From assembly GCA_031213475.1 (NCBI GenBank), contig JARUPZ010000009.1:8837601-8901600 (forward strand): DNA of 64,000 nt. The letters run 5' to 3'. Made by a program: the position numbers and the translations under genes. This document shows positions 7,980 through 28,611 of this stretch, in pieces (position 1 is the first letter of the stretch; each line of letters opens with the position of its first letter). This DNA is from Nereocystis luetkeana. Lineage: Eukaryota; Sar; Phaeophyceae; Laminariales; Laminariaceae. Below the pieces are notes generated by a model. The model saw only the letters and a list, made by a program, of their open reading frames with translations. It was not told the origin of the DNA and did not search any database.

Positions 7980-9170
7980 TTTATGTGTACCTAACTTGTA
8001 CGGATCGTATGTGATACAGCAGTGTCTACATCCAGTTTGTTTTTCAGAAGGTATCGTAATCATTATGGCCTCCCATGACACCATTTGTGTGATATTACGA
8101 TATCACATAATGATGTAGATAAATCACCTGAATGTAATGTTGGAAAATCATGTTGTTAAACCATGTAGTTGAGTAGACGACACGGGTTTTCCCAGATGAA
8201 CAAGTTTCACTCGGTAAGTAAGTGTGTGTCCCATGCTCATTCGGCGGAGATACTAAATCTCCCGGACACATCGGGCACTTTGTTTCACTCTCTTGGAGCA
8301 TTTGCCCACTTACATAACAACAACCGGCTTATGTACGGGCGCAGACGACGTAGTCACCTGAGGAGATATAGGGAGGCTGTAAAGCTACACTAATCGCATG
8401 ACGGTCAAGCCTTTAGAACTCTGCTGCATGGGTATGAACGCGTCGACGAAGTTTCTTGTCCTCCCCTTTACGCCCAACCCTCCCCACCTCCCCCCTTGCG
8501 CGTTGAGGTTGACCTGTCTGTGAGTGGATCCGAGGTTGGTAGAATACGCGATGAGCGTCAGAGGTAGCTTTGGGGTAGCCTACTGCCGTACCATGACGAG
8601 TGTAGCTGTGCTGATGAAGAATCGTTGTGATAAAACGTCCGCCCTGTCTGCACGTTGTCTTGTTTGTCTAGCGCGTGATCCGTTTTTTAATATGGGATGA
8701 TACGTTGAACCCTGATCGATCAACCATTGTAGCGTTTTTCTGACCTACTGTGTTGCTTCAATGGTCTACAGAATACGACGCAAGTGATATATATATGCTG
8801 CATGCGTGGGACGCCGTATAAATGCTTCACCCGCCAACAACACGTGTCATAATGCTTTCTGTTGATACGAGGATACCAGTTTGTTATTTGAGCAGATTGG
8901 AAGATGCGTATTTATGCGGCTCAACATTTGATACGTTCCAGCAGTGGGGGAGCTTCCTGATTGATGGTTGATTCCGTCTACATACAGCAGTTAGTTTCTA
9001 GCAGGGGATGCTTGTTGTACTGGGGTAGTTCATATTTTGGAGTCGCTTCCGTTGAGATTGATATATTATTCAGGAAAAAGCTGGGAAAATATGAGGTGAT
9101 CGCCAGGACGAATTTGAAAAGTACAATATATTGTTCCCCGCTTGACAAATGGTATATGCCCTCTACCGAG
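7980..9170. other. Intergenic, no gene recognised
   Basis: No frame with recognisable protein similarity. Frames at 8169-8393 and 8961-9245 are short; the second runs into the LTR. The region ends at the 5' LTR, preceded by CGAG, the left copy of the target duplication. Confidence 0.5.
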
Positions 9171-9453
9171 TGTTATAATACTGCTTTGTATGAGGTTGAA
9201 AGCCCAGTAACTACCTGGGTTCTGGCACTGGGATCATATTTGTAGTACCTGGTACTTGGAAGGCGTATCTTAGGTGGAAAACCAGGGGTTTTCCAGAGAG
9301 GCACGAGGATGGTTTCAGTCACCGTCGTGCACGAAAGGAATCAAGTGGCTCTTCTATCTCTAAGCCAACATCAACGTGAGTACCACCGAGTGCCGGCCTA
9401 ATAGGCAGACCTGTCCAGGGATACAAAATGTCCCCCTCTCCGTGATCTTAACA
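9171..9453 (+). repeat. 5' LTR
   Basis: 283 bp, begins TGTTATAATACTGC and ends GATCTTAACA. It aligns end to end with 22796-23071, apart from a 7-bp insertion near the TACCTGGTA word at 9246 and about 30 substitutions. It would carry the element's promoter; no TATA box can be assigned with confidence. Confidence 0.95.
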
Positions 9454-9455
9454 AG

Positions 9456-9473
9456 TGGCGTCTTCGGCTTATG
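9456..9473 (+). other. Candidate primer-binding site
   Basis: TGGCGTCTTCGGCTTATG begins two bases after the 5' LTR. Primer-binding sites start with TGG because they pair with the CCA end of a host tRNA. The tRNA species cannot be named from this sequence alone. Confidence 0.35.
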
Positions 9474-9565
9474 ACTTTTTGCCTTTTGCCGGTACAATTT
9501 TGGTTATCACTATTTTTTTCCTTTCGCTTACTTTTGTTTTTAGAGACAGTTTGAGCCACTGCACG

Positions 9566-10315
9566 ATGGAGACTCGCGAAGAGGGAGGGTCTGCTTCCCC
9601 TCGTGGTGGACGAGACACTGAGGCCCAGAGCCCCACAGTGCCCCACCGCCCAAGGCTCGTCGATGAAGATCGAGCGACTTGTACAACAGACCACCAAGCG
9701 GAGCGGGTGTCTCGGCAGGAGCCCCGTGTGGACGACGTGGATCGCGCGCCTTGTACAACACGCCCGCCCGAAGACCCAGGGCTGGGGCCCCTTGGCGAAT
9801 CTCGAGAAGCCTCCGGCAGACGGACCTCGTTCAAGATCTTTTCCGAGCTTTCTCGCTCGCCGGGTCGAGCTCTGTCGTTCAAGCCGCCTGGCTCCGCTGA
9901 GAACGTTCAGCCAGCTTCTTCCGCTCTGGGCCGGAGAGCGTCCGACCCTTCGGAGCGCGTGGCGCGCGTAACCAGCCAGGCCTTGAGTTTTGCAGTTTTG
10001 ACTCCCCACTCGTGCCATCTGCCGTCCAAGCCACCTGGCTCCGATGCGGGCGTGGAGCCAGCTGCTTCTGCTCTGGGCCGGAGAGCGTCGGACAAACCTG
10101 GACGTAGCGGTTTTCACGCCACCCAACTGCGCTCTTCGCCATCGGATCTACCTGCACCTGGGCCAGATGAGAGAGTGATTGGGACTGGTTTTCCGCCTCG
10201 CACGATTCTACTGCTGCCCGACCTCGCTCGTACGCGTAGGATAGCCGCGAGCGATGCGGCTTCTCGTGTTTTTTTCCGCAACGAGCGCGCACGATGCGAG
10301 TTTTTCCGTGCCTGA
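9566..10315 (+). pseudogene. Gag-like leader frame
   Basis: An open frame from the first ATG after the LTR (METREEGGSASPRGG) to a stop at 10315. It is rich in Pro, Ser, Arg and Ala, likely disordered, and contains internal duplications: (E/V)DRA.CTT at about 9664 and 9732, and a 147-bp repeat (KPPGS...SSALGRRASD) at about 9881 and 10028. It overlaps the next long frame, suggesting one ancestral gag broken by a frameshift near 10254-10315. No capsid signature is recognised in this part. Confidence 0.45.
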
Positions 10316-11130
10316 ACCACACGATGACACACTGGATTTCAGTATTGATCCCGTTTCCCTCACTGCTGTAGCTGCAAACGACGATTCCGCGTGGAAATTC
10401 CGTACTGCTGCGCGTTTTAGTACCGCTGGTAGAGGGGGAGAAGCGGCCGCTCGTGAGATTTTCCCCGCGCCTCGCCCACAAGACGGCACACAGGATTTCG
10501 GTATTGAGTCTACTTCCTTAGCGGTCGCTTGTGAAGATTCTCCCACGCCTCGCTCAGATGACGGCACACTGGGTTTCGGTATTGCGCCTGCTTTGCCCAC
10601 TGCTGTGCCCGCCCGCGCCGTTTCTGCTGAACACTCCAGTACGGCAGCGAGTTTTGATGATGGAGTTAAAGGGAGCGATATGGTCGCTCGTGATTATTTT
10701 CCCACGCCTCGCCCACAAGATGGCACACTGAATTTCGGTATTGCGCCTGCGTTTTCCGCTGCTGTGCGCACCCGCGCCGTTTCTGCTGAAAATTCCAGTA
10801 CGGCTGCGAGTTTTGATGCTGCTGTTAGAGGGAGCGATATGGCCGCTCGTGAAAATTTTCCCACGCCTCGCCCACAACACGGCACACTACATTTCAGTGG
10901 TGCACCTGCCTTTTCCTCTGCCGTAGCCACCCACGCCGATTCTGCTGGAACCTACAGTACTGCTGCCAGTTTTGAGACTGCTGCTAGAGGGAGCGAGACG
11001 GCAGCTCGTGTCATTTTTCCTGCGCCCCGCCCACAAGACGGCGTCGTGGAGTTCAGTATAGCGCCTACCATATCCGCTGCTGTAGCGACCCGCGACAATT
11101 CTGCTGAAAAATGTGCTGAGAAACAAATTA
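10305..11130 (+). repeat. 159-bp (53-residue) repeats in gag region
   Basis: Units start near 10305, 10464, 10542, 10701, 10860 and 11019. Spacing is 159 bp except one shortened unit of 78 bp. Each encodes a phrase like PRPQDGTLNFGIAPAFSAAV followed by a Ser/Ala-rich stretch. Both 159 and 78 are multiples of three, so the frame was kept during expansion, meaning the repeats arose while the frame was under selection. Confidence 0.9.
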
Positions 11131-12150
11131 TTACTGCTGTTGGAAGGGACGATGCTTATGATAGCCCCCCTAGTACCGGCGACGTACCTGCATCAAACAC
11201 ACTGGATGTTAGTACACGTTCACCCTGCGACGACCCCATTTTTGCCGCCCCACCTTCTCGGGCCGATGCTGACTCCCCAAGCGCTAGTAGTGCGCTCCAA
11301 ATGGCTCGCCATGCCCTCATCACCGCTAGACAAGTTGCTGCAGCACGAGCCGCGGATACTGCCGCCGCAGCTCCTTCGTTACACGACCCTGAGTTCCGCC
11401 GAATGCCGCTGCCCCCGGCCCCGGTGTCCCCCCCTGCCCCGGTGCCCTCCCCTGCCCCGATGTGTTTCGCTCGTCCCCGACTCAGCATGCCACGGACACC
11501 AAAGCCAAAGGAGGAATCCGCCAGCCCCGCCAGGTCTGCCAGCGGCCTGAGGACTTACGGCTTCTCTCCCTCGTCGGGAGAGCGGACACCCCAGCGCCTG
11601 GGCCGGACAGATTTGGACGACGCGGTGGACTACGAGGCCCGCAGTTCCGAGGACGAGAAAGGGACGACGAAGCAAGACGCCGCCAAGGAGACAGCGCTGG
11701 ACGGGGATCAAGCCCTGCCCCCTCAACTACCAGAGGCTTCGACCTCCCTCTCAGTCGCGGCTCAGGCGGCCCTCATCCGGCGCTGGCCGGACGTGCCGGG
11801 CCTCGGCAGGGGGACCACGGCTCAATGCTCGACCCCAGCCCGGGCCGATGCGGCCGCAGCCGAGCGTCCTTTTGATGCAGCCGACGGTCACCCCGATGTT
11901 GCGGCGGCCGAACGGGCCTTGACAGTCGCCGAGACCCCCGGGGCGACCTCGGCGAAACCGCCGGCCGCCGGGCGCAGGCGCTCACGGTGGCCGAGACTGT
12001 GGCATCAGCGGCCGCTCGCACCGTCGCCGACGCTACTACTGCTTCGGAGGCCGCAAACAACGCTTCGAAGGAGGCCGTCGTGGCCTCGGAGAACGCCGCA
12101 CGCTTCGCCTCCTGCGCCGATGATTCCATTTACCGCGCCAGGGAAGCTCT

Positions 12151-12236
12151 GCGGGCGGCGCGGGCGGACGGCAGCACGAAGCCCCGTCGTGAGGCGGGCG
12201 GCGCGGGCGGACGGCAGCACGAAGCCCCGTCGTGAG
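12151..12236 (+). repeat. 43-bp tandem duplication causing a frameshift
   Basis: The segment starting GCGGGCGGCGCGGGCGGACG occurs at 12151 and again at 12194, a 43-bp step. The peptide ADGSTKPRREA therefore appears in two successive frames. Removing one copy would join the upstream frame (11987-12235) to the downstream one, so this duplication is one of the lesions of the element. Confidence 0.85.
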
Positions 12237-14285
12237 GCCGAGACAAGAAACTCATGGGAGCGCCTTCCCCTCGGCGGGGCCGCGACAGCCGCCACTCCAG
12301 CCCCCGGTTTTGGCTCCTCCGCCACGCTCCCTCCTAGAGCCATCGCGGTCGACGCCCGGATTAAGCGTACCGGGGGTCTGGATTTGTTCCAGGGGAGTGT
12401 CGCCTGCATGGTCGCCGCCCCAAATTCATGCTTCCCCTTGGAGGGGGCTTCGAGGGTTGTCTCTGCCGCTCGCGAGCTCCGACTGGATATGTCCAACGAC
12501 GACCTCTCCATTCACGACGCTTGGCGTGCCATGGGGGGTGACAGCTGGAAGGCCGAGCAACGCCGGCAGCACACCATGGCTCTCGTGAAAAACCTGGGGC
12601 AGGCGCACGACTTGTCCTCCGCCACCGTTTTTTCGCCGACCCCGAAGGAGTATGGGCGCCATTGCAAGCGCCGGGCTGACCTCGGCGCCCAGGGACAACG
12701 GCTCCCGGACGTCGGACAGGGCTCGGGTCAGGCCCACGCCCCCTCCCACTCCGTCTCGGAAGACAGAACTCACCGACCCCCGGGGCGCCAAAGCCGGGGA
12801 GTCCCCGACGGCTCCGGGGCCCGTGACCACCCCTACCGCCGCTATGACGCCCGGGTCCGCCGGCGTCCAAGCACGGGGGGAGCCTCGACAGGCCAAGACG
12901 GCCAAGCCCGCCGCGGACAGGGTTCAGATCATGGCAGGAGCACGTTTCGGCGAAACGGTGCTGGTCGGCGGCGGAACGGGGGCCAGGGGAAGTACAGCTC
13001 GAGCGACGGGCGAAATTGGAGCGACAGCTCGCGGGGAGACGCGTCTCAGGCCGAGGTCCTCCACGGACGGCAGCGGCGAAAACCCCGTTCCCGTTGTCAC
13101 TACCGGCTCCAAGAGGCAAGTTCCTTCGCTGGCGGCCGTTGCTTCCTCCGCCGCGCTTCTTGGTCGCCTGACCATGTCCGAGGACCGCGCCATGCCCGTG
13201 TCATCTAACCCGGCCCACGCTCGCACGGCGGCGATCGACTCTGCCGCCGCCGCCGCCGCGAAAAAGCACATCGCAGACGTCCAACGGGCGTACAAATACC
13301 TGGGACAGAAGGATATTGCACAAATTTCTGTTCTACCTTTTCCCTCCTCGATCAACCCTTCCGACGCCGCACAGCAACTAACTCGTTCGGTTAAGGCCTC
13401 CACGTCTGATATTCTTATGATGTGCAATAATGGCAGCCACGAAGGCCTCAGTTCTACCGATTGGATCCCCGGTTGGGAGTATCCCCTCAAGAAATCCTTC
13501 GCGCGCGCCATCGCACATGACAGGCCCACGACCGCCCTCCTTACTACCTTGATGGATGATGTTTTTGGGCAGGTGTCGCGCGCCCTCGCTGCTGGATTGA
13601 CGGGGCCGGAAGCGTTCACGCTAGGTCTGAGGCTGCTGAGCAACCACTTCGACCTCACCGACACGGGGGCCAGCTACACCAAGTTGCATACTTTTGGCGT
13701 ACCTAACGGGACCCCCCTTTGCGATTTAAGCCGTGCTTTTCGGGAAGTGGTGTCGGCAGCGACGGGGACTCAGTTTTGACTCCGAGGGTGGAGGTTGTTT
13801 TGGAGGTTGTTCGGATGGCAGTGAACGAGCACTTGCCCAGCTTGATGCCCACGCTGTACCCGGGAGTTTGGGCTACGGTGTCGAGGACGTTTGGTACTTT
13901 GCACGCCATGTGGCTGGCTTTTGAGACTCTCGCGAATATTAAGACACCTGCCATCAACGGCGAAAAATATTTTTGTTTGCCTGCTTCTTCGACGAGTGTG
14001 CAGTCATCCGCCCCGTCGGGGCCCCGGCCCGCCGTTAATGGTCGCGGCCAGGGCCGGACGCTTCCCCAGTCGCCTGTCTGGCAGACGGGGTCGCGCAATA
14101 TTCCGCTTGTGATGAACGCCCACAAATACATTCCTGACTGCCTCGACCCGTGGCTTGACACCACTATGCTGAATTTCACGCTGTTTGCATATCCATCCAG
14201 ACCGAGGACCCCCCCCTTTGGAGCGGTCTACTTTTATCGTCGTCCCGCGCGGCCGCCTTCAGCGAAAACCGAGGCCGCTGCTTAA

Positions 14286-15709
14286 ATTTTCCACGAAGAC
14301 TCACACTCCCCCCGACAGTGTAGGCATCCCTTTCAAAACCTCAGGTGTATTCTCAACCCCGACCTCGGAACTCTCGGCGACGACGGAGCGGCGTTCCGCC
14401 GCTGGCAAGAACGCATGACTCGACACCGCCGCGAAAATACCTCACGGTCGAACAAGAACTACCACAAGCAAAAACAGGCGACGTTCAGGCCATTCGCGTG
14501 GGCAGCACCACGGCCAGGGCCACATACAAGGTGACGGCTACAACACACACGCGGAACGAGGGCACCAACAGTCTAAATCCGACTACCACGGTGGTGGTTC
14601 GACCACGTCTGCCTCTTTCACTGCGGCTCCCGCGTCGGGGGTTCGCTACGGTGCCTCGAACAATGCGGACAGTAACCCCGACGGACGCCATCCGGGCACC
14701 TTACGCGCCGGTACCCGACAGGTCGACGGCGGTTCATCTCCTCATGCCCGCCCGCCGCCAGCATTGCCTGGAGAAAATACATTGATTTCAGAAGATACAC
14801 GCGTCCCAGGCTCGCTCAGCGCTAAGCGTCGCCCTGCGCCGCCCCCCTCCGGCGCGTTGCTCCGTACTTCGGACCGACACAGCGACTCAGCTCCACCGGT
14901 TCTACCGGGGAGTCCCCGGGCGTCTTCGCCGACGTTGGAAGCACGCGCCTCGAACGCCGCTCGCCTCACCCTGGGCACGAGAGCAGGCGAGATAACCGCC
15001 CCTCTCTCGAACCACGCACCGCACGGCATCACGCGTGTCGCGCCGTCCGGTCGTTCTATCCATCGAGGGTGTCCCCCTCTTTCACCTCCCGGCCTTGCAG
15101 TGGCGGTCGGTTTGAGGTGCGGGAAGGCAAACACTGAAACCCCGAGATCTCGGTTGAAGCTCGACTCAGCGTTTCCTCGCAATAACGATGGCCGTTCAAT
15201 CCGTTCTCCAATTAAGGAAGAGTCGACAAGATTAGCTACCTCGTCCTCCTTCCCCACCAAGTCTGCAGGGCGGAAGCCCTCTCCGGTGGACCCTTTGTTG
15301 CCCCCCAATGGAGCACCGTTCTTGAAGTCGTCTACAGGGTCTGCAGGCCCTCTTTCGTCTTTGCGCACGCCACTCCACGCGCGCCGCGCTCCTTTGGCTC
15401 CAGTGGAACAGGAACAACCTGGTACTGCCGGTCGAGCCAGTGGTGACTCCACAGCCTCCGGTCAGATCAACCGGACAGCATACCCGTTCAATTCGGAATA
15501 ATCGCAGCTCTCGTCAAGCAGGACGGGCTCAGAGCTCCCTGTCATCTTTGGTCCAGGACAGAGATCATCGGGCGCAGTAAAAGAACCTTCTGGCGAATGT
15601 TTGGCTACGGGCAATGGTGACCAAGCGCTCAGTGTTCTCAGAGAAGCACACTCCCCAAAACTCACACCGCAACGGTGGCCACCGACGACTCGACATATTC
15701 GGTCTTTGA
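14286..15709 (+). other. Gag-to-NADAR linker region
   Basis: Low-complexity Pro/Ser/Arg-rich frames, the longest at 14764-15501 (245 codons), with no recognised domain. The phrase FRRWQERMTRHRRENTSRS can be read near 14390-14450, a basic stretch of the sort seen at the end of Gag. Frame disruptions prevent a clean reading. Confidence 0.4.
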
Positions 15710-16198
15710 CCCTACTCTCGAGTATTCAGCGGAGCGGGTGGTATTTTCTGGCAGCCCCCCTCATATTTTTCGCAGTGGTCCCCCTCGGTTTTTGTCATTG
15801 ACGGAGTGGCATCCGTTTGCTCGGAGCAGTATATGATGGCTGAAAAGGCTCGCCTTTTTCTGGACCACGACGCACCGGGACGGATTATGTCCTCGCCAGA
15901 CCCTCGCGAGCAGAAACGCCTCGGTCGAGGCGTGCACAACTTCGACTGCGCTACCTGGGACCGCGTTCGGGACGACGCCGTCCTTGCTGGTTCCTTTGCC
16001 AAATTCACGCAGAACCCGGTCATGAAGCAGCACCTATTGAGCACTGGCAACAACATTTTGACCGAAGCCAGCCCTTTTGACTCCGTGTGGGGCATCTGTC
16101 TCCGGGCAGATGACCCCGAGGCTCAAGACCCCTCTCGGTGACGTGGCAAAACTTTTCTCGGGAAAGCTCTTTCCGCCGTTCGCGACACCCTCCGCTAA
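15710..16198 (+). pseudogene. NADAR (YbiA-like, DUF1768) domain inside the retrotransposon
   Basis: One frame from 15710 to the TAA at 16196-16198, broken once by TGA (16139-16141), covers a nearly full NADAR domain. Visible landmarks in order: IFW...YFSQWSPSVFVIDGV (about 15743-15808), EQYMMAEKARLF (15824 on), a P.E..RLGRG segment, WDRVRDDAV, AKFTQNP, LLSTGN..LTEASPFDSVWGI (about 16034-16096) and, after the stop, RGKTFLGKALSAVR. The TGA sits exactly where the family has Trp, so it is a simple TGG to TGA change. NADAR proteins include bacterial YbiA, which acts on riboflavin-pathway intermediates, and ADP-ribosyl hydrolases. The domain lies between gag and protease within the LTR pair, so it is element cargo. 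The copy is inactive as read. Confidence 0.85.
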
Positions 16199-16297
16199 AG
16201 TGAGGCCGGGTTGGCACCCCCCGCCTCTTCAGATCAATTTTGAAGTCCAACCACGACTGACGGAATACATGAGATTTCCCCAGCGCCGCCTGGCCCT

Positions 16298-16681
16298 TTG
16301 GCCGTGGCCCGCGCTTGCCTAGGTCCTCCCTTGGAGTTTTGGACGTTTTTTTCTGACGCGCCGGCTGATCACAGCCCCGACGTTTTGGCTTTCGCACCTG
16401 GTGTCGACCCCTTCCTCGCGCTACCAGAACACGGCCCCTGCCTCGTCCAGGGCACCATTACCCTCGATGACGCCTCTTTTACAACCAAAATCACGATCCA
16501 CAGCGGAGCTGGCGTTTTTGCACCTTTTGGCTGCGTGGCGTTTCTTGACACTGGCTCCCCACAGACAACCATTCGGCAAGATGGTTCGGATCGCATACTC
16601 ACGGTAGGTGCGGCATCCATCGCGTGCGAGGAGAAATGTGCCCCTCGTTCCTGGGGGGGGTTGGAGAATCAACCTTTTTAA
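16298..16681 (+). pseudogene. Retropepsin-like aspartic protease
   Basis: The frame carries CVAFLDTGSPQTTI (DTG codons from 16547), the active-site loop of a retroviral-type aspartic protease, which works as a dimer to cut the polyprotein. It is preceded by the hydrophobic strand GAGVFAPFG, as expected. The frame ends at 16681; further pol sequence continues in other frames to 17349 (for example LPRSLDLLGLPLSDAACS at about 16730), showing frameshifts. Position between gag and reverse transcriptase is canonical. Confidence 0.8.
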
Positions 16682-17349
16682 AGATATCGACGAGAGTGCC
16701 CCTGAGCGTCCAATTTGTTCGAGAAAATTAGCCTACGTGCTCCCTCGCAGTTTGGACCTGCTTGGTCTCCCCCTCAGTGATGCAGCATGTAGTACTGCTG
16801 GGACGTGGCTGCAGGATGCGTTTGAAAAGCCGCTTCTACCGCTATCTCTCACCTCTGCCGTCAGACAATCGCGTTTAAGGCGAGTTGGAGTTACTTCACC
16901 CCTCCCCGATAGGCATGTCCGTGTACGCCATCGACCCCGCCGCTACGGGAGGAGGCTTCCATCTCCGCTACGAGGGCGCGTCAGGCGTCACCCTGTCTGA
17001 CGATCTTCAACTCCTTGCGGTTTAATAGGTTCGAAGCGATGGCTTCCCGGCACTCACTGGGCACGACTTGGTCGACATGATACCCCAGTCCGACCTGCCT
17101 TCGGTTGAGGAGCACGTCGTCGCCTCCGGGCGACAGGTTCTTCCCCTCGTTGGAGTGGCGGCCCTCGAGCCTGACGATATCCTCGACCTCGCCCACGCCT
17201 CACTGCTGAGCGTTCTACTGGACGTTTGGCATTGGGACAACCGAGCCCCCAGCCTTCCGTCAGGACTATCTGAGGTGGCTCCGGTCTCGCCAGTTTCAAC
17301 GTCCCCCCTCGCAGATCCAACCTAGCCCTCGCCTGCACTGCTTGAGCGT

Positions 17350-18850
17350 TTGAGACCTGAACAGCGCGTTTCGTTCCTGGGCGTCTGGGAACATTTGCCG
17401 CTGCATCTGCGGGAGGTGACGTTTGACCTTCACGGCACGGACTGGGCCCCTGAGGCCACCGAACAACAGGGGGATGTTCTCTGCGATTTTCCCGACGTAT
17501 TCTCGAAGTCCAAATCTGATTTTGGTTCCCGCTCGTTGATGCCTTTCGTGATTTCGGTCCCGGAAGGAAGCCCTCCCGTCACGTCCAGGCCGCACCACAT
17601 CAACCCCATCCTGGCCAAGGAAGTGGAGGCCACCTTGGATCAGTATCTAGCGGCGGGTCTGATCCAGCTCTCGACCTCTCCGTACTCGAGCCCGCTGGTG
17701 GTCAGCCCGAAGAAGTAGGGAGGCGTTCATATCGCAGTGAACTACAAGAAACTCAACCAGATCAGCAACCTCAGCCAGCTGCCTATTCCTCGCATGGATC
17801 AAGTTGTCGACTCCCTGGGGAAGGGACGGGTGTTTTCTCGCTTCGATTTGGTCTCCTCGTTCCCACAAATTACCGCGCAAAAAGCCACCGTCCCCCTCAC
17901 GGCATTTTGCCTCCTACGAGACTGTACGAGTGGCTGGTCATGCCCCAAGGCAGCAGTGCTTCGCCCGTCTGGTTCGTCAAAGTGATTAACAAAGTCATCA
18001 AAGGCCTGGCACAGGTGGTGGCCTACCTCGATGATGTGATTGTCTCCAACTCTGATCCGACGGCCCACGTCAAGACGATACGAGCCCTTTTCGAACGCCT
18101 GCGCAATCACAACCTCAATATCTCCCCCTCGATGGCTCGCCTTGGCGCCACGGACGCTAATTATCTGGGCCACTCCATTTCGCCCGCGGGTATACGCCCA
18201 AAATGCAGAAACCGTTTCGGGGTTGTTGAAAATGCCCATACCCAAGAACCTCAAGCAGGTCCGAGCATTAATGGGCGGAGTGGGATAGTATCGCGAATTC
18301 CAGCCCGACCTGTCTAAAAGGATCCGGCCTCTCACAGCCATCCTTCGGAAGGGGGTTAAGTACGTCTTTACGCCGGCCATTGAAGTTATCGTTCGCCAGA
18401 TCCTCGCCGAGCTCGCTGCCCCGCTAATTTTGGTCTTCCCGGACTGGGACGCTGTCGCCGACGGGTCCTGCCCCTTTCGCGTGTACTGTGACGCCTGCAT
18501 CGACGGTGTTGGTGCCGCGCTTGAACAAGAACAACTGGACGGCTCGTTAGGGTTCATTGCTTATATCAGCTGCGCTACTCTCGATTCCGAGAGCCACTGG
18601 ACCCCGTTGGACCTCGAAGCGGGTAGAATTGTCTCGGCTATCATGCGACTCCGCGGCTACCTATGGGGGATAAAGTTTCGCATCTGTTCGGACCGCAAGG
18701 CACTTGAGAACATCGGGAAAGTAGGGGATCAAAACGCGCGAGTTCAGCGGTGGCTCTAGTTCCTCACAGCGTTCGACTACACCCTCGAGTACCGCAAGGG
18801 CAGCGGCAACGGCAATGCTGATTTCTCTCTCGCTTGCCAGAGCCGGCCAC
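17350..18850 (+). pseudogene. Reverse transcriptase and RNase H, broken
   Basis: Reverse transcriptase reads HHINPILAKEVEATLDQYLA, then SSPLVVSPKK, a TAG at 17716, GGVHIAVNYKKLNQ, FSRFDLVSSFPQI, YEWLVMPQGSSASP and YLDD (18024-18035), the catalytic motif. RNase H follows with YCDACIDGVGAAL, DLEAGRIVSAIMRLRGYL and DYTLEYRKGSGNGNAD. Lesions: TAG 17716, frameshift near 17910, frameshift near 18190, TAG 18286 (expected Tyr), TAG 18757 (expected Glu). All other landmarks are intact, so decay is mainly point change. This enzyme copies element RNA to DNA and removes the RNA strand. Confidence 0.9.
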
Positions 18851-18934
18851 GGAACACGACCGCAGTGGGTCTAGCAGTTTCACACCCGTAGAGGACGGGG
18901 GTATCTTCCTCACCCAGGCCTGCGGGCTTCGCAC

Positions 18935-19963
18935 TTGCTCTTCCTCCACCCCCGGTGTCGGTTGGGCGGGCTGGTGCCACAACTCAAAAGTGCCGTCTTG
19001 GGTGGGCCGCCTTTCACCTCTTCGGATTTTTGCGATTTTCGCGCGCACGGGCCACGTATGAGGATTGACGACCTCTCTGCTCCTTCGGGGAGATTCGTCG
19101 CTCGTGCGTCTGCTTCCGTCGCCAGCGTGGGTCGCCGTGTTGGCTTGAGATATTTTGTACCTGCCGCCAACACCGCTTTCGCTTCGGTTTTCGTCGTACC
19201 CTCCGGGGGCGACCAGGGCTCTGCAAAAGCCCCCGCTGCAACGACGATTATCGCCCAGCACGCTCCTCCCCCGATGAGCATTTTACAGGGAGAAGATTCC
19301 GCCGTGAGTACTGCTCCGGCCACGTCTGTCCCTTGAGGCCAGGGGAATGCAGAAGCCCCCGCTGCAGCGACCACTGTTGTCCAGCGCGCTCCTCCCCCGA
19401 TGAGCACTTTACAGGGACAAGATTCCGCCGTGAGCACTGCTCCGGCCGCGTCTTCCCCTCCAGGCCTGGGCAATGCGAAAGCCTCCGCTGCAGCGACGAT
19501 TGTCGGCCAGCGCGCTCCTCCCCCGACGAGCAATTTTCAGGGAGAAGAATCCTCTGTGATCACTGATCCGGCCGCGTCTACCTCATTACCGCCTGGCACC
19601 CCGGCTCCCCCGAACGTTTTGCCGTCTTCCGGCCGCATCTCCACTCGGACGCGCCGACGAACAGCCGCCGCCGCTGGCTCCGCGCCGCCTACTGTTGATT
19701 ATGGCTTCGGGCCCGGTGGGGGCCCTAGACCATCCGCCCGGCGTGCTATCACCCCGCAGCGAGTCCCACGGCCGCGACCGGCCGCGCCAGTCGTTTTGAC
19801 TCCGGCTCCTGCCTCTTCGTTGGTCCCGATGGTACCCATCCCGTCCGAACGCGACCGCGCCGAGCCCGCGGGAACCCCTCTTTTACTGCGTCCGCTGACA
19901 ACCGACGCACCGCCCGTCCCCACGAATGACTTCGACACTCTCGGCGCAGCTGCCGAATATTAA
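18935..19963 (+). pseudogene. Repeat-rich spacer between RNase H and integrase
   Basis: Pro/Ala/Ser-rich frames (18935-19336 and 19400-19963) with no recognised domain lie where most gypsy elements go straight into integrase. The 126-bp repeats at about 19239-19600 fall in it. A stop at 19334-19336 breaks the repeat frame once. Confidence 0.5.
19239..19600 (+). repeat. 126-bp (42-residue) tandem repeats in pol spacer
   Basis: Three units marked by CGCTCCTCCCCCGAYGAGCA at about 19261, 19387 and 19513, spaced 126 bp. The encoded unit is (R/H)APPPMS.LQG.DSAVSTAPA. The spacing is a multiple of three, consistent with expansion inside a working frame. Confidence 0.9.
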
Positions 19964-20041
19964 TTATGTGATTCTGCAGCGCGCTATACGCACAACAATT
20001 GGGCACGGGAACAACAGGCCGGGCCCGCGTGCAACGCCGCC

Positions 20042-22130
20042 ATGCACTACATAGCCCTTAGCTGGCCGGAAGATTTGCCCGCCGACTTTTGGTCGTGTTT
20101 CCCTTCCCACCAGCGCCCTCCTTTCACGGAGGATCAGGAGCTGGCTACCAAAGGCCGTTTACACACAACCGACGCGGGCATCGTTCTTCTCGTCTGGCAG
20201 CCGTCCCCCCCCCCTGCGTCAGGCACGCCACGCCTGGTGGGTCGTGCGGCCTGTTTTATTAATGACGAGGCTATTCGCATTTATTTATCTGCCGCTCCTC
20301 ATGCGCCCCTGGGTCATGCAGGCTTGCCATTCCACGGCTTCCTGCCACCTAGGAACAGCGCGCACCCTACGAATGCTCGAACGTTTCTACTGGTGGATCG
20401 GTATGAGCCTCTGCACCCGGTGGTGGTTACGCAACTGCTTGAAGTGCCAAGCACGGAAAACGTCGCGGAGAACGGTCCGGTGGCCCATCATCACATTGCC
20501 CTAGCCAGAAAGGCTCGGCATCGCCGTCATCATCGACTATTCTGGCCCCCTCCCGGTGACGCCTCGAGGAAATACCTACATCTCGCTTTTCACTGATCGT
20601 TTCAGCCGCCGAGCTGACATGTACGCCATCACAGCGGCAGAGTTCACCGCTGAGGGCACGGCTAATATTCTCATCAACCGGTATATTCCTCTCTGGGGAT
20701 GCCCGCGCAGCATCCTCTCGGACAACGGCCTCCAATTCTGCTCCAAGCTTTCGCACGCCGTATATCAGCTTCTCGGGGTTCGAAAAAATGCCACCAACTC
20801 CTACCACCCAAACGGCCACGGTAGGGTGGAACGTGTAAAACACACGATGGCCCAGATGCTGGCAATGGTCGTCAACGAGCTCCAGAACAACTGGGATGAA
20901 CAGCTCCCTCATGTCGAGTTTTCGTACAACAACTCGGTTAGTGCCGCCACGGGCTTGGAACCCAACTAGGTACATAACGGTCGGCTGCCACGCCTCCCCT
21001 TCACGATTGTCGAGCTTGCTGGAGTCGCCGGCCACCAAAGCTTGGCCCGCGAGCACCTCGCCTATCGCGACGTGGCGATGGACCGCCAGCAGCGCGCGTA
21101 CGATATCGTTCGCGAACACCATGCCCTCGCTGTTGCCCGTGTGAACCGCCGCAACTCCGCTCTCGCCGACACTCTGCGTCCCGTCCCCAGATTTGACGTT
21201 GGCGGCTGGGCGTGGGTGTACAATACGGCAGCCACCATCCGCCAGGGGGCAAAACCCGACACGGACGCCAAGGTCCTCGGGGCCAAACTCTCACTCAACT
21301 GGACAGGCCCCTACAAAGTTCTCGCAGTTGGCCCCTGCTCCGCAGCGGACACGCCGGACGGGTCTCATCTTGGGGCAAAGCTCCTGTATTTGGATCTTCC
21401 CTCCGATATGCCCGCCGCGGATGCTCGTCGGCGCGTTTCAGTTCAACACTGCAAGCCCTGTGCCAACCCCCAAGACCGTGGCGACATGTCGAAGCATTTT
21501 CCAGCGGGGTTGACGCAGTACGTGCTCAACAACTTCTCCGAGAAATCTCCCCCGTACCACGTCACCCAGGACGACGTCTCGACACCTCTTCACCGACTCG
21601 AAGTGGAAAAGATTACCGGACACCAATCGGTTCGAGGTCGAGGTGGCGTCATCGCAGTTATGTACGAGACGCACTGGACTGGACTCTCCCGTCCATCCTG
21701 GGAACGGGAAAGCGACCTTGAGCTTTCTCGCCACGCAAGTTTGCGCTACTGGGCCGGCACCCCGAACCAGCATCGTCTAACCAACCGCCTGTACCGCCGA
21801 ATGAGAATCGGTGCGGCACAACGGGAGCTCTCTCGGAACAACGGCCAGCGGCTTCTGGCACCCGGCAATGGCTGCGTCTCGCACGACGACTGGCTCCGCC
21901 GATACTGCAACACCGTTCTTCCCAACGGGGCCCATGCTTGGTACAAGGGCGACGACGGACTGTGATGGCTCGGGAAAATCTGCGCGACTACGCTCACGGA
22001 TGGAGTATATTTAGTTCGATTTTTGGACGACCCGGGACCGATCAAGCTTCCTCTTTCTCCGGCGCGCTACACGACTTCAACGAGAGCTGTACTCGACTCT
22101 TGGTTTCTACAAATTATCTTGGCTAGCGCA
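20042..22130 (+). pseudogene. Integrase with chromodomain and extended C-terminus
   Basis: Most of this lies in one frame (from 20244) broken by TAG 20502, TAG 20967 and TGA 21963. The zinc-binding HHCC part reads CHLGTARTLRMLERFYWW and CLKCQARKT. The catalytic core has IDYSGPLPV (Asp near 20544), LSDNGLQF and HPNGHGRVERV (Glu). After the core, GGWAWVYN and LNWTGPYKVLAVGP resemble the GPY/F module. A chromodomain-like segment follows (LEVEKITGHQS..GVIAVMYETHWTG...SWERESDL...LRYW, about 21596-21755); such domains steer integration to marked chromatin. Beyond it, YKGDDG and, past the TGA, WLGKI...GVYLVRFLDDPGP may form a Tudor/SH3-like barrel. The N-terminal zinc-finger part is split between frames near 20330. 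Confidence 0.85.
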
Positions 22131-22795
22131 TTTGCACGGGTGGTCCAGAGTAATGTCGCCGAATCTCGAGGCGCTGCCGTGGATCCCTGATTTTCGCTCC
22201 TGGCTGCGCTCTTTTTTGTTTCTTAACGTTTTCCTGGACTTTGGGTGGTGGTCTTTCTACTGGGTGACGGTTTCCGACTTTTCGGGTCGAGTTTTTTGTG
22301 CTGGCACGTGTGTTCCTGATTTGTTTGTTTGATTGTTTCTCTTGGGATTGGTTGGGGATGTTTTTCGCGTATCCTGTCCTGCATACCCCCTCGCTCAGTG
22401 TCGGGGCTGGTTAGGGTAATCGGGCCACTTATTTGTGGCACAAGACACGTTTCCGGAGTAGTAGGCTGGGTTTTCGATGTCTCTTGATATCTTCCGTGAC
22501 ACTTTTCTTCTTGTCATTTTATTATTCGCTTTTCACTTTCCCTGCATATTCCTCGCCCCCCCCCGTCGCGGGTGACATGTCGATGGTTCTTCGTGGATGA
22601 TTTCTTCCCGCCCCTTCAGGCTACGCTTCCTTACATTCTTTTTTTACCTAATTTGCCGGCTTCGTTGCCTTGCCGTTCAGAGGTGTGGGAGTGGGTTTCG
22701 AGGAGCCGCTTCTTCGACTCATGTTCTAGTTGTGGAATCGGGGTTTCCATGAATTTCCCCTAATTCTGCATATACGGCTCATCAGAGTGGGCTCG
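22131..22795 (+). other. Element 3' untranslated region
   Basis: T-rich DNA without recognisable coding between the end of the integrase frame and the 3' LTR. A polypurine tract should lie just before 22796; only a weak candidate (AGAGTGGG, about 22784-22791) is seen. Confidence 0.5.
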
Positions 22796-23071
22796 TGTTA
22801 TGATACTGCTTTGTATGAGGTTGAAAACCCGGTAATTACCTGGATTTGGGCACTCGGATCGTATTTGTAGTACTTGGAAGGCGTATCTTAGTTGGAAAAC
22901 CAGGGGTTTTCCAGAGAGGCACGAGCGTGGTCTTAGTCTCCGTCGTGCACAAAAGGAATAAAGTGGCCCTTCTATCTCTAGGCGAACATCAACGTGAGTA
23001 CCAACGAGTGCCGGCTTAATAGGCAGACCTATTCAGGGATACAAAATGCCCCGCTTTCCGTGATCTTAACA
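22796..23071 (+). repeat. 3' LTR
   Basis: 276 bp, begins TGTTATGATACTGC and ends GATCTTAACA, paired with 9171-9453. Followed directly by CGAG, the right copy of the 4-bp target duplication. Divergence from the 5' LTR of roughly one site in ten indicates an old insertion. Confidence 0.95.
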
Positions 23072-24058
23072 CGAGCAGGAGGGCAGGGTGTGACATGGTG
23101 GTTTTACTCTCGGGCTCGGTTGATGTTTGGTTCTCGGTTTGGTATAGAATGAAGCTTGCTAAAGTTCCTACTTCCTGTATTTACGTTGAGGATGATCTTT
23201 CTATGAGTTGACCTTTATTGGGTGGAGACTTTCTTGGATTTGGTACTACTAGACACATGAGTTTTTTCTGGATGGAGATTAGTAGATTAGTTGACAGTGT
23301 TCTGAGTGGAGACTTTCTTGGGTTTTGGTAGTAATTTACTATCGTAATAATAAACTCATGATTTGGATTTTGGGACTGAGAGTGTATTTTTTCTATGTGA
23401 GACCAAAAAATTAGAATTTTGGTATTTGATATTCGTTTTTTTCGCGGATTTGAGTTTGGGTTTTGATTTACAATTCATGAAATTGATTTTAGTTTGGGAT
23501 TTTTGGGGCTACTCTGTTGAACTTGACATGGACAAGTGGTTAAGAGATTTTGGTCTACACTTGTTTTGACCCAAATTCACTCTGCTGCTGATGAACGTTG
23601 GACCAACCGCCGCGGGAAGGCTGAGTGTTGATTACCGGGTCGATGTTGAAGTTAAAATGAATATGGTTCTGAAAATATGAGATTTGAGATCTATTTCTGT
23701 TTGAATCTGAGATTCGGTTTTGGGTAGTAGGTATTTATTTGAGTTTTGGTAGGATATCATGATGATGAGTCGATTTTTGTACTATTTTTTTGAAGGTTTG
23801 ATTTCATTTTTACGGGTGGTTCTTTTGCCTTACCTGTAGATAAATGATTGATGACATGGTGGTTGATAGCAGTATATATTTTGAGGACGTACTGCTGCTG
23901 CTGTTGTGTTTCAGAGCTTGAGGGGCTTGTTTTAATTTCCGAGATCTGAGGAGTTGATTAGTATGGGGTTTCCCCGTAAGAAAAGAGAGTCGTGAAGATC
24001 GTCGTCTCGCCAAAAGAAAGTCGTCTCGAGGTTACGCCGCTAAATTATACGTAAAAAT
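23072..24058. other. Intergenic, no gene recognised
   Basis: T- and G-rich plus strand with short phrases repeated loosely (GATTTTGG, TGGAGACTTTCTTGG at about 23224 and 23304). No coding signal. Confidence 0.5.
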
Positions 24059-25635: not shown

Positions 25636-28611
25636 ATTCATGTGTAACGGTATTTGGGAGTTCCATACAGGGAATATGCGTGTTCCTGTGTGGAGCGGTC
25701 AACGGGTTGGGACGTGTTCTGTCGACTTGGCCACTTCCACTTCGACTTCCCTTCCTTCCTTGTCTTCCTTGTCGTGTGTGTTCTACGTGGATACTATATA
25801 TACCCTGCGGGGCTTCCCCTCCAAAGATCGCGCCGCAGTGTCCGCGGGTGCGGCGGCTTGTTGGCGACCGCCACCGAGGTGGAAGACGGAAACGCCCCTC
25901 CGTGGCGCCCTGACGATGAGTACGCCTCCGAGGTGCTCTTCGACGTCATCAGCTCCCGCAGTGCCCTTTCAGGCCCCGGAAACGATGGTCAAGGCTTTGC
26001 GCGCCTGCAATCTATCCTCCACACCGACATCGGGCGGGAAGAGGTCGGAAAGGGCATGACAGCCTTCTGGCGGAGAATCGTCGACGAGCCGGATGCGTTC
26101 CCGCCAGAATTGTGGCAGCTCTTTTTGCAGTCGAGCCTCACTGCCTTGGGCGATAAGTGCCGGCCGGTTTGCGTGGGCATGACATGCAGGCGGCTCATCA
26201 CCCCGGGGGCTATGCGACAGTGGCGGCCGCTGTTGGAGGAGGTCAACCGAGAGGTGAGGCAGTTTGGGGTCGCCGTACCCGGAGGAGTGGAGCATGTGGG
26301 GCTGAGGGCTAGGACGTTACACGAGACGGGCAACTGGGTCGCCCTAACGGACTGCTCCAACGCCTTCTACAGGGTTGGACGGACGGCGGTTCTTGAAGAG
26401 GCGGCCAACTGCGTTCCAGCGCTCACGATGTTTGTGGCGAAGTGCTACGGCACAAGACCCGCCGACGTGTATTTCCTGATGGACTCAGGGGAGACCAGGA
26501 CGATCGCCTGCTCCAGCGGTGTCCAGCAAGGGGACCCCATGGGGCCAGGAATGTTCTGTTTGGCGTTGAGACCAGGGCTGACGCGTTTCCGACAGGAGGT
26601 CGAAGGAGAAGGAGTGGAAGCCTTCGCCTACATGGACGATGTATCTCTCGGCCTTATGGGGGTCACGGCCAACACGATTAGAGCTTTTGCCTTCCTCCGG
26701 CGAGAGCTAGACGACATCGGCATTGTGGTCAACCCCGCCAAGACCGTAGCACTACCACCCAAAGGACACGTCCCGACGGCGGAGGAGATATCGCTCTTGG
26801 AGAGCGTTGACGTCCGCATCGCAGACGAAGTATGGGTGACGGTGTTTGGTGTCCCGATCGGCTCGGGTGAATACGTGCTGGGGCGAGCAATGGAGGTAGT
26901 GAGGGACGGAGGCGCGGACCGCCTTGCACGCTGCCTCGCTAATATGCCAGACAAGCAAGCGGCGCCCCTCATCACCGTCGAATCCCTCGGGCAGCGGACG
27001 GGCTACCTCGAAAGGGCTCTGGACCCGGGGCTGTCACTCGAAGCATGCCGAAGGGCCGACAACGGGGCTCAGTGGGCCTGCGAAAATATCCTAGAGCTAC
27101 CGGGAGCGGCGGACGCACAGTCGTTTTTCCAGGAGGGGTGCCCGGCCAGCCAACTGACTCTAAAACCCTACCAACAAGCCCAAGCACGCCTTTCTACGGG
27201 AGCAGGAGGGTTAGGGCTGCCGTCGACGGAAGCGAGGCCAATGTCTGCCTCCAATGGGAGTAGGGTGGGCATCCTGCCGGAGGTTCTAGCAGACCTCACG
27301 GGCCCGCTAAGAGACAGGGTAAAGAGGGATCTCCCTCATTCGAGCATCATTGCTGAGCTCGGGGGCAGCCTGCGAGAAATCAGGGACACGTGGGGCGTGA
27401 CAAACGAAGCGATGGAGGGCATCGTCCCCGAATCCTGGCTGGAATGGAGCATGGGTGCAGAGGGGGACCTGGTCCCAGGGCCACCTGAAGCCGACATGCT
27501 GGCGGCGCATGATGGCGTAACCACCAACTCCCAGAAGGCTCAACAGAGGTTGGGCAAGCTGGTGAATCAGGGTCGACACGCTGAACACACAGCCTCGCTG
27601 GGGGGGCTACCCGAGATTGCACGCCCACCTGGACCAGGCGATCCGCTGGGGGGGAACGAGACCAAGGCCTTTGCCAAAGCTCGCTACAGGAGCCTACAAG
27701 GAGCAGGAGCCACTGCTTGCCTTCGGGCGAGGCCAACAGACTCGCTCCGTGTCATACCCGCAGAGGAGTTCGTGGGCATGGGAAGGCGCTTCATAGGGAT
27801 CGAGGAGCACGTGGCGGTGAGGTGCCCCTGCTGCGAGGCAGTCGACATCGACACACGCCACGCACGCATCTGTCCCAGAGCAGGGGCACAGGTAAACCAA
27901 CATCAACCGTTGGTTCACGCGATCTCCCGCACGCTGAAGCGGCTGGGAATCCCTCACCAAGTGGAGAGCGGCGAACCGTTCACTGCAGACCGGAACCTGC
28001 GGATGGACATCGTTGTCAGGAGAGGAGGTCTTCGGGACGCTCCTAACAGGGAATACAGGGAAACGTCCATCCTGCTGGACGTCACCCATGCAGACCCGCA
28101 AGCGCAGGTCCACCTGCGAGGAGGCAGCGCTGATGATGATGGATCAGCTGCCTCTACCTCCGAGGCACGCAAGCGCCAACACTACGCGCGTCCGGGACAT
28201 GTGTCCTTCGATGATCGGAGCCACAAACTAGCCACCTTAGCGATGGAAAGCTTTGGGTGCCTCGGGGTAGAGGGCAGCAACTTCATCGATCAGCTGGCAG
28301 CTAGCGTCGTGGGGGGGAGGGATGGTGTGTCGATGGCAAGGAAGGAGGTAGTGAAGGAACGCCTGCTCCAAATCGTCTCCGTGACCACTCAGGTCGCCAT
28401 TTCGAGGAGGGTGTCGAAGTTCAAGATTCAGCTTAGGGACCGCCAAGAAGGAAGAAGGAACAGGGGAGGGAGGGACGACAGACCCACACCGATGACGTGG
28501 GGATGGAGCTTGGATGAAGTTTAGGATTTATGGATAGAACGTGATGAGAAGGAAGGAGCAAATACAGCAAATATTGTAGACAAGCCGAAAGTTGGCACGG
28601 AAGGGAGGTAG
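25636..28611 (+). mobile_element. Non-LTR retrotransposon with restriction-like endonuclease
   Basis: A 2,976-bp unit bounded by the 13-bp direct repeat ACTTGGTGCATGG. It consists almost wholly of one open frame plus a short 3' tail of about 87 bp without poly(A). The frame starts right at the left boundary without a good ATG, so the copy is probably 5'-truncated. The domain order (reverse transcriptase, CCHC knuckle, restriction-like endonuclease) is that of early-branching non-LTR families such as R2, NeSL, HERO and Utopia. Confidence 0.75.
25654..28524 (+). CDS. Reverse transcriptase / restriction-like endonuclease protein, 5'-truncated
   Basis: 956 codons open without a stop. Reverse transcriptase motifs: KCRPVCVGMTCRRLI (about residue 168), motif A VALTDCSNAF (about 229), motif B SGVQQGDPMGPGMF (about 289), motif C FAYMDDVSL (about 324). 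C-terminal: a knuckle CPCCEAVDIDTRHARIC (about 722), then RMDIVV (about 782) and ILLDVTHADP (about 806), matching the (R/K).D...DVT pattern of restriction-like endonucleases. In this class the endonuclease nicks the target and the transcriptase primes from the nick. The listed start is TTG; the first in-frame ATG is near 26055, inside the fingers region, so no natural start can be given. The intact frame suggests a young insertion compared with the gypsy element. Confidence 0.85.
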   Translation: MGVPYREYACSCVERSTGWDVFCRLGHFHFDFPSFLVFLVVCVLRGYYIYPAGLPLQRSRRSVRGCGGLLATATEVEDGNAPPWRPDDEYASEVLFDVISSRSALSGPGNDGQGFARLQSILHTDIGREEVGKGMTAFWRRIVDEPDAFPPELWQLFLQSSLTALGDKCRPVCVGMTCRRLITPGAMRQWRPLLEEVNREVRQFGVAVPGGVEHVGLRARTLHETGNWVALTDCSNAFYRVGRTAVLEEAANCVPALTMFVAKCYGTRPADVYFLMDSGETRTIACSSGVQQGDPMGPGMFCLALRPGLTRFRQEVEGEGVEAFAYMDDVSLGLMGVTANTIRAFAFLRRELDDIGIVVNPAKTVALPPKGHVPTAEEISLLESVDVRIADEVWVTVFGVPIGSGEYVLGRAMEVVRDGGADRLARCLANMPDKQAAPLITVESLGQRTGYLERALDPGLSLEACRRADNGAQWACENILELPGAADAQSFFQEGCPASQLTLKPYQQAQARLSTGAGGLGLPSTEARPMSASNGSRVGILPEVLADLTGPLRDRVKRDLPHSSIIAELGGSLREIRDTWGVTNEAMEGIVPESWLEWSMGAEGDLVPGPPEADMLAAHDGVTTNSQKAQQRLGKLVNQGRHAEHTASLGGLPEIARPPGPGDPLGGNETKAFAKARYRSLQGAGATACLRARPTDSLRVIPAEEFVGMGRRFIGIEEHVAVRCPCCEAVDIDTRHARICPRAGAQVNQHQPLVHAISRTLKRLGIPHQVESGEPFTADRNLRMDIVVRRGGLRDAPNREYRETSILLDVTHADPQAQVHLRGGSADDDGSAASTSEARKRQHYARPGHVSFDDRSHKLATLAMESFGCLGVEGSNFIDQLAASVVGGRDGVSMARKEVVKERLLQIVSVTTQVAISRRVSKFKIQLRDRQEGRRNRGGRDDRPTPMTWGWSLDEV

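What the first reader, a model, noticed from the sequence alone, without database searches (positions are those of the whole stretch)
15710..16198. A NADAR (YbiA-like) domain carried by a Ty3/gypsy retrotransposon
Seen: a near-complete NADAR domain (FVIDGV, EQYMMAEKARLF, WDRVRDD, LLSTGN..LTEASPFDSVWGI, FLGKALSAVR) lies between gag and protease, inside paired LTRs, interrupted only by a TGG to TGA change. Known: NADAR-family enzymes include YbiA, which removes N-glycosidic groups from riboflavin intermediates, and enzymes that remove ADP-ribose from nucleic acid. Inference: the element may have used it to reverse host ADP-ribosylation, a widespread antiviral response, or to act on nucleotide pools during reverse transcription. 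A retroelement with such cargo is, as far as I know, little described.
Basis: partly seen in the sequence, partly recalled or inferred. Interest (0 to 1): 0.9.

Follow-up and report, generated by a model that had tools for sequence, protein, structure and literature searches.

The report
Retrotransposon lineage carrying a NADAR enzyme
The window holds a decayed copy of a large family of jumping genes whose replication protein starts with an enzyme domain of a kind that removes ADP-ribose; the same arrangement was recently reported from a brown alga, and it looks selected for rather than accidental.

Summary
Confirmed: a NADAR domain (Pfam E 6.5e-36) lies between gag and protease inside a 13.9-kb Ty3/Gypsy element (9171-23071; 283/276-bp LTRs, CGAG duplication). 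This copy is dead: one stop inside NADAR, gag and pol broken elsewhere. It is not a chance insertion. The host genome has 150 scored NADAR places (778 candidates), 48 of them in open frames of 2,003-2,428 aa; in the stretches read, NADAR heads Pol, ahead of the retropepsin. Three subfamilies carry it. Catalytic residues are mostly kept, and dN/dS in the window's subfamily is 0.53 (0.38-0.74). One TGA separates Gag and Pol in 23 of 25 copies examined, but only 7 of the 23 read openly on into NADAR. Prior art: PMC12477816 reports NADAR at the Pol N-terminus of an Ectocarpus Gypsy lineage. New here: selection and active-site data, and two Gypsy polyproteins from unnamed ENA contigs: P0143 with NADAR between RNaseH and integrase, P0124 with NADAR before protease and Macro after integrase, places where retroviruses carry dUTPase. 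Best reading: a Pol-borne ADP-ribosyl hydrolase protecting the element's nucleic acid; substrate untested.

The parts
9171..9453 (+). 5' LTR (283 bp, TGTTA...TTAACA)
9167..9170 (.). target-site duplication CGAG, left
9454..14715 (+). gag side, broken frames, with direct repeats at 10379-11057; limits inferred from the junction seen in relatives
   Evidence: no Pfam match in the two pieces tested
14716..14718 (+). Gag/Pol junction codon: CGA here, TGA in 23 of 25 distinct copies examined (window included)
14719..15709 (+). N-terminal linker of Pol (Pro/Ser/Thr-rich)
15710..16198 (+). NADAR domain, premature stop at 16139-16141
16547..16558 (+). retropepsin active-site motif DTGS in the frame 16244-16678
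   Evidence: motif only; relatives
17520..18314 (+). reverse transcriptase piece
   Evidence: PF00078 E 6.7e-16
18289..18756 (+). RNase H
   Evidence: PF17917 E 3.7e-20
19213..19590 (+). three 126-bp tandem repeats between RNase H and integrase
20505..20966 (+). integrase core
   Evidence: PF00665 E 1.2e-6, 29.2 bits, below the Pfam cut-off of 32.6
20970..21962 (+). integrase C-terminal part with a weak chromodomain match
   Evidence: PF00385 E 0.0094, 16.3 bits, below the cut-off of 25.1
22796..23071 (+). 3' LTR (276 bp)
23072..23075 (.). target-site duplication CGAG, right

Best explanation
A dead copy of a large Ty3/Gypsy lineage whose Pol begins with a YbiA-type NADAR hydrolase. Shown: the domain sits at a fixed place (N-terminal part of Pol, before the retropepsin), is shared by three subfamilies, mostly keeps the residues that bind and hydrolyse ADP-ribose adducts, and is under purifying selection in the window's subfamily. 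Inferred: NADAR is made as part of Pol behind a conserved TGA that ends Gag (by readthrough in subfamily A; the mode in C and B is unclear), is packaged in the particle at enzyme stoichiometry and is freed by the protease. There it removes ADP-ribose (known NADAR substrate: guanine-linked ADPr in DNA) or a related N-glycosidic adduct from the element's RNA or single-stranded cDNA, placed there by host ADP-ribosyltransferases, much as retroviral dUTPase keeps uracil out of cDNA. Estimated steps: cargo under selection 0.95; active hydrolase in intact copies 0.8; substrate is nucleic-acid ADPr and purpose is protection 0.45; readthrough 0.5.
For: Copies: 150 scored of 778 candidates, all 150 over the Pfam cut-off. 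A listed NADAR lies upstream of RNaseH in 83 of 150 RNaseH hits, and no listed NADAR within 6 kb lies otherwise. Of 19 upstream pieces taken from the RNaseH list, 13 hold NADAR; the other 6 have no blastn match to this element. dN/dS in subfamily A is 0.53 (0.38-0.74) for 16 copies, and 0.54 (0.36-0.80) for 10 taken from the RNaseH list; RNaseH itself in 4 A copies is 0.58 (0.36-1.03). Catalytic E43/K50/E125 (8BAU numbering, PMC11543638 section 12) are kept in 13 of 13 C and 2 of 2 B copies, and in 16, 15 and 12 of 16 A copies. TGA junction in 23 of 25 copies; in A 6 of 8 such copies keep NADAR in the frame of the TGA, 4 of them without a stop between. Other Gypsy polyproteins: P0143 has NADAR between RNaseH and integrase; P0124 has NADAR before protease and Macro after integrase. 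Between these and the window lineage NADAR is more alike than RT, the reverse of the pattern within the lineage. Host PARP-like match.
Against: No activity was tested. Within subfamily C alone dN/dS is not clearly below 1 (0.55, 0.25-1.28), nor in B (one pair), and the linker of A gives 0.67 (0.51-0.87), not far above NADAR. NADAR changes faster than RT/RNaseH between subfamilies (47% against 78-80% identity). Four of 16 A copies lost E125. The adenine-ribose contact D86 is replaced in all 31 copies aligned (C, A, E or Y), as it also is in the five bacterial-type homologues aligned. Against readthrough: in 13 of 23 copies with the TGA, among them 10 of 13 C copies, NADAR is not in the frame of the TGA, and no RNA structure beyond chance follows it (z 0.22, -1.54, -0.38). 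I saw nothing in print on ADP-ribosylation of retroelement nucleic acid in algae.
Confidence: 0.5

Rival explanations
1. Nucleotide or metabolite hygiene: NADAR clears damaged or modified nucleotides or reactive riboflavin-like N-glycosides from the pool used for reverse transcription, as YbiA does for riboflavin intermediates, without any host attack.
For: YbiA chemistry (PMC11543638 discussion passage). Placement resembles that of retroviral dUTPases (PMC1224870 passages). The YbiA-type catalytic Glu is mostly kept.
Against: Co-occurrence with a Macro domain in P0124 points to ADP-ribose rather than riboflavin intermediates.
Confidence: 0.25
2. RNA processing: NADAR acts on ends or caps of the genomic RNA (for example products of NAD-dependent RNA repair), as suggested for RNA viruses and for the Ectocarpus elements.
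For: Proposed in PMC12477816 section 5; NADAR-RNA-repair links in PMC9503650 (passages).
Against: No RNA-repair partner domain was found in the two Pol frames scanned.
Confidence: 0.15
3. Non-catalytic role: the domain binds ADP-ribose (on chromatin or proteins) and helps target or anchor the particle.
For: The ADPr-contact residues R79, W89, R93, D130, W133 are kept in nearly all 31 copies; PMC12477816 section 5 reports chromatin readers on the polyproteins of all four Ectocarpus Gypsy lineages.
Against: The catalytic Glu/Lys/Glu set is kept too, in 13 of 13 C and 2 of 2 B copies.
Confidence: 0.08
4. Chance insertion or captured gene without function.
For: The window copy is broken; 4 of 16 A copies lost the catalytic E125.
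Against: Fixed position in many copies, long open frames, dN/dS below 1 in A, three subfamilies.
Confidence: 0.02

Closest known systems
NADAR-bearing Gypsy lineage of Ectocarpus (Gypsy-12_Ec32 and relatives; PMC12477816)
   Same: [quoted passage not shown] its figures and supplements not seen)
   Different: Other, larger genome (465 Mb against 200 Mb); sequences could not be compared, as the Ectocarpus library is not held here. Selection, active-site and junction data are not in the passages I read.
Retroviral dUTPases (betaretrovirus N-terminal of Pro; non-primate lentivirus within Pol; MuERV-L C-terminal of IN; PMC1224870, passages read)
   Same: Small enzyme cargo gained several times and kept at comparable places of the polyprotein
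   Different: Different fold and chemistry (recalled); analogy only
NADAR and Macro domains in polyproteins of positive-strand RNA viruses (PMC9503650, passages read)
   Same: ADPr-processing domains embedded in a replication polyprotein; proposed to undo host ADP-ribosylation
   Different: RNA viruses; Macro and NADAR largely exclude each other there, whereas P0124 has both
DarT1-NADAR and YarT-YbiA toxin-antitoxin systems (PMC11543638 section 12 and passages; PMC11125620 passages)
   Same: Same fold and catalytic residues; guanine-ADPr hydrolysis
   Different: No ADP-ribosyltransferase partner in the two Pol frames scanned

Membership tests
Ty3/Gypsy (Metaviridae) LTR retrotransposon | paired LTRs with TG...CA ends and a short target-site duplication | tested here: met
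Ty3/Gypsy (Metaviridae) LTR retrotransposon | order PR-RT-RNaseH-IN | tested here: met
   window pieces; in one frame in L046 and L057; PR by motif only
NADAR superfamily | Pfam PF08719 match and YbiA fold | tested here: met
YbiA subfamily of NADAR | Glu in the last strand (E125 of P. nicotianae NADAR) | tested here: met
   present in the window, in 2 of 2 B, 13 of 13 C and 12 of 16 A copies
BC4488 / DarT1-associated NADAR | Asp in place of that Glu and a DarT partner | tested here: not met
   Glu found; no ART domain in the two Pol frames scanned
[quoted passage not shown]
NADAR-Gypsy lineage of brown algae | sequence kinship with Gypsy-12_Ec32 | not testable with these tools
   Ectocarpus sequences not held; host of the window unnamed
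active ADP-ribosyl hydrolase | hydrolysis of guanine-linked ADP-ribose | not testable with these tools
   residues only
stop-codon readthrough Gag-Pol | Pol in the frame of Gag behind a single conserved stop | tested here: inconclusive
   TGA in 23 of 25 copies; same frame in 10 of 23 (A 6 of 8, C 3 of 13, B 1 of 2), open in 7 of 23

The most novel reading that the evidence does not exclude
LTR retrotransposons of algae and other eukaryotes have repeatedly and independently captured ADP-ribose erasers (NADAR in at least two or three Gypsy lineages, plus a Macro domain in one), at the polyprotein places where retroviruses carry dUTPase. That would imply that ADP-ribosylation of retroelement nucleic acid is a widespread, so far unseen host restriction.
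Probability: 0.35. Interest if true: 0.85.

Novelty: new member of a known kind. Interest (0 to 1): 0.55.

Why it matters
It turns a curiosity (NADAR in a retroelement) into a testable claim: a selected ADP-ribose eraser with its catalytic residues is part of Pol in a whole lineage. Two other Gypsy polyproteins show the same kind of cargo, once together with a Macro domain. If hydrolysis is shown, it points to nucleic-acid ADP-ribosylation as a defence against retroelements.

Tried and rejected
Chance insertion was rejected on copy number, position and dN/dS. A separate origin of NADAR in subfamily C against A+B is neither shown nor excluded: the tree separates them, but one clade is not rejected (p-AU 0.377; all retroelement NADARs together 0.38). 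Bacterial or viral donor: not resolved. A+B join one supported clade (99/96) with eight unnamed ENA proteins; bacterial and IMG/VR sequences surround it. The 66 rows were chosen by me from 143 proteins, 27 viral loci and the genome copies (6 of the A and 4 of the C rows kept), so neighbours of subfamily A are over-sampled. A readthrough-stimulating RNA structure was sought in one copy of each subfamily and not found. Retroelement-borne NADAR was sought in IMG/VR with P0124 and P0143: P0124 gave no relative, P0143 gave two loci without RT or IN matches; among the 27 loci the two hits flagged by my filter only spill over the edges of the NADAR region. A macrodomain in the window genome's own elements: the Macro family gives only two short matches in the whole genome.

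Counts limited by tools and by my choices: the genome search scores only the best candidates, so 83 of 150 and 7 of 150 at 2.58-2.81 kb (plus two chance neighbours at 8.6-8.8 kb) are lower bounds. L040-L059 were picked by me from the NADAR score list (20 of 150), so they favour well-kept domains. The control set L060-L078 comes from ranks 2-22 of the RNaseH list (all window-like): 21 ranks, of which C11:3964758 was left out as already held and C6:9035432 because its known NADAR lay nearer than the piece; the piece of L073 was shifted to take in a known NADAR place. The 13 of 19 should be read with that. Only 10 of these 13 entered dN/dS; L063, L064 and L075 were not given to the script. For dN/dS each copy was used in its best-scoring tblastn match, codons with stops or gaps skipped.

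Full report
What is there. The window (G000:C9:8837601-8901600 of an unnamed 465-Mb genome) contains one LTR retrotransposon at 9171-23071. Its LTRs are 283 and 276 bp, differ at 27 of 276 aligned bases (K2P 0.106), end in TGTTA...TTAACA and are flanked by the same four bases, CGAG. Inside, in order and on the + strand: broken gag frames, NADAR (15710-16138, then a stop at 16139-16141), a retropepsin motif (16547-16558), RT, RNase H, integrase and a weak chromodomain match. The NADAR match is far beyond chance (E 6.5e-36). The fold model agrees: the only PDB hits at E<=0.001 are the oomycete NADAR-ADPr complex and E. coli YbiA. The host is probably a brown alga or a close stramenopile; I infer this only from the kinship of architecture with the published Ectocarpus lineage. 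No call names it.

Is it element cargo? Yes. The family search scored 150 NADAR places of 778 candidates, all 150 above the Pfam cut-off; 48 of them lie in open frames of 2,003 aa or more. A DNA search with the window's NADAR listed the window itself and 39 places at 91-93% identity, of 319 candidates. An RNase H search, which does not select for NADAR, listed 150 of 1,333 candidates. 83 of the 150 have a listed NADAR upstream on the same strand, 80 of these at 2.53-2.73 kb, and no listed NADAR within 6 kb lies otherwise. Of 19 short upstream pieces taken from ranks 2-22 of that list, 13 hold NADAR; the other 6 have no blastn match to this element, so they look truncated or disrupted and give no example of a NADAR-free copy. 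Among the 150 best matches to the general RT_RNaseH family (of 1,143 candidates), many in frames of other lengths such as 1,512 aa, only 7 have a listed NADAR 2.58-2.81 kb upstream; these belong to the lineage already seen. NADAR therefore seems to mark one Gypsy lineage and not all; these counts are lower bounds.

Anatomy of the lineage. Three subfamilies were seen in 20 fetched stretches: A (window-like, NADAR 79-89% identical to the window's; 67-87% in the RNaseH-chosen pieces), B (53-55%) and C (42-46%). Where the frame is long the order is linker (up to about 370 aa), NADAR, retropepsin DTGSPQ about 265-280 aa after the NADAR start, RT, RNase H, integrase, in a single frame of up to 2,428 aa. 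Such frames were seen in C and in one B copy; the five A copies fetched are all broken (longest frame 882 aa). The last Gag residues (PG-T/V-FR...) and one TGA lie about 0.94-1.15 kb ahead of NADAR. The TGA is present in 23 of 25 distinct copies examined: 8 of 10 A (the other two are the window, which reads CGA, and L005, where the junction was not found), 13 of 13 C, 2 of 2 B. Whether it is read through is not settled. NADAR lies in the frame of the TGA in 10 of 23 copies (A 6 of 8, C 3 of 13, B 1 of 2), and in 7 of the 23 no stop stands between (L007, L008, L040, L042, L049, L050, L054); in the other 13 of 23 the linker is shifted. A conserved stop in the Gag frame with open copies in A and C suits readthrough, but indels in the linker, a frameshift or a restart could also serve. 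No RNA structure beyond chance follows the stop.

Selection and active site. Mean pairwise dN/dS for NADAR in subfamily A is 0.53 (bootstrap over codons 0.38-0.74, 16 copies), and 0.54 (0.36-0.80) in 10 copies taken from the RNase H list. In the A copies that could be measured RNase H gives 0.58 (0.36-1.03, 4 copies) and integrase 0.37 (0.20-0.65, 3 copies). The Pro-rich linker gives 0.67 (0.51-0.87), so the contrast with a poorly conserved stretch is modest. In C the value is 0.55 but not clearly below 1 (0.25-1.28), because the copies are very alike; B has one pair. Between subfamilies dS is saturated; the 95% ranges of the bootstraps that could be computed (202, 347 and 193 of 1,000) lie within 0.12-0.44. 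The residues shown in PMC11543638 (section 12 read) to catalyse are E43, K50 and E125. They are kept in 13 of 13 C, 2 of 2 B, and 16, 15 and 12 of 16 A copies; the contacts R79, W89, R93, D130 and W133 are kept in nearly all 31, D86 in none. The Glu at E125 places the domain in the YbiA subfamily.

Relatives elsewhere. A search with a Pol piece, scored on NADAR, returned 22 proteins; 21 show no RT or integrase among their listed Pfam domains, and one, P0124 (1,560 aa, one sequence on an unnamed 6.1-kb ENA contig), has NADAR (cut at its start), a DTGS protease motif, RT, RNase H, zinc finger, integrase and a Macro domain (E 1.9e-19) at the C-terminus. A second search returned P0124 itself and P0143 (1,693 aa, unnamed ENA contig) with NADAR between RNase H and integrase. 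Against subfamily C, P0124 is 52% identical in NADAR but 38/36/24% in RT/RNaseH/IN. Within the window lineage C and B are 47% in NADAR but 78/80/70% in RT/RNaseH/IN. NADAR thus changes faster than RT within the lineage, yet is more alike than RT between lineages, which fits separate captures better than common descent. The NADAR tree alone cannot decide: one origin of all retroelement NADARs is not rejected (p-AU 0.38). P0124 is a single sequence, so a chimera is not strictly excluded. Retroviruses carry dUTPase N-terminal of Pro, within Pol, and C-terminal of IN, gained three times (PMC1224870, passages read). NADAR and Macro sit at comparable places here (that the lentiviral one lies between RNase H and integrase is recalled).

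How it most likely works. By analogy with dUTPase and with the NADAR/Macro domains of RNA-virus polyproteins (PMC9503650, passages read), the enzyme is carried in the particle as part of Pol and removes ADP-ribose or a related N-glycosidic adduct from RNA or single-stranded cDNA. The writer would be a host ADP-ribosyltransferase; the genome has one partial PARP-catalytic match (E 1.1e-5, profile positions 9-58 of 199) and two short Macro matches, so the chemistry probably exists in the host. Substrate, packaging and purpose are inference.

Known or new. PMC12477816 (section 5, part 1 of 2, and passages read; [quoted passage not shown] The window element is a new member of that known kind. I found no report of a retroelement with both NADAR and Macro, or of NADAR between RNase H and integrase, in the listings of seven searches of the held open-access library (one search listed 20 of 104 papers, 20 of 67, 15 of 46, 8 of 971); subscription papers and preprints are not held.

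Noticed in passing
window 25648-28524(+): Open frame of 958 aa with a reverse-transcriptase match (PF00078, E 3e-12), 2.6 kb downstream of the LTR element; looks like a non-LTR retrotransposon ORF.
   Followed up: no
window 10379-11057: Direct repeats spaced 159 bp (families of three and four copies, 70-86% alike) in the gag side of the element.
   Followed up: no
window 19213-19590: Three 126-bp tandem repeats between RNase H and integrase, the place where P0143 has its NADAR.
   Followed up: no
P0124 (protein on an unnamed ENA contig, 1560 aa), residues 1-121 and 1339-1435: A Gypsy polyprotein with both NADAR and a Macro domain, at the two ends of Pol.
   Followed up: partly
G000:C13:6246743-6253997 (L079, L080) and G000:C20:9599331-9599474 (L081): Short Macro and PARP-catalytic matches, probably exons of host genes.
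   Followed up: no
L046, L050, L054 (subfamily C), linker between the Gag stop and NADAR: A tandem duplication in the Pol N-terminal linker (a block of about 30 residues twice).
   Followed up: no
L043-L054, L059 (subfamily C), linker behind the Gag TGA: In 10 of 13 C copies the linker frame is shifted against NADAR although the Pol frame behind it is often open; chance indels or a programmed shift are both possible.
   Followed up: partly
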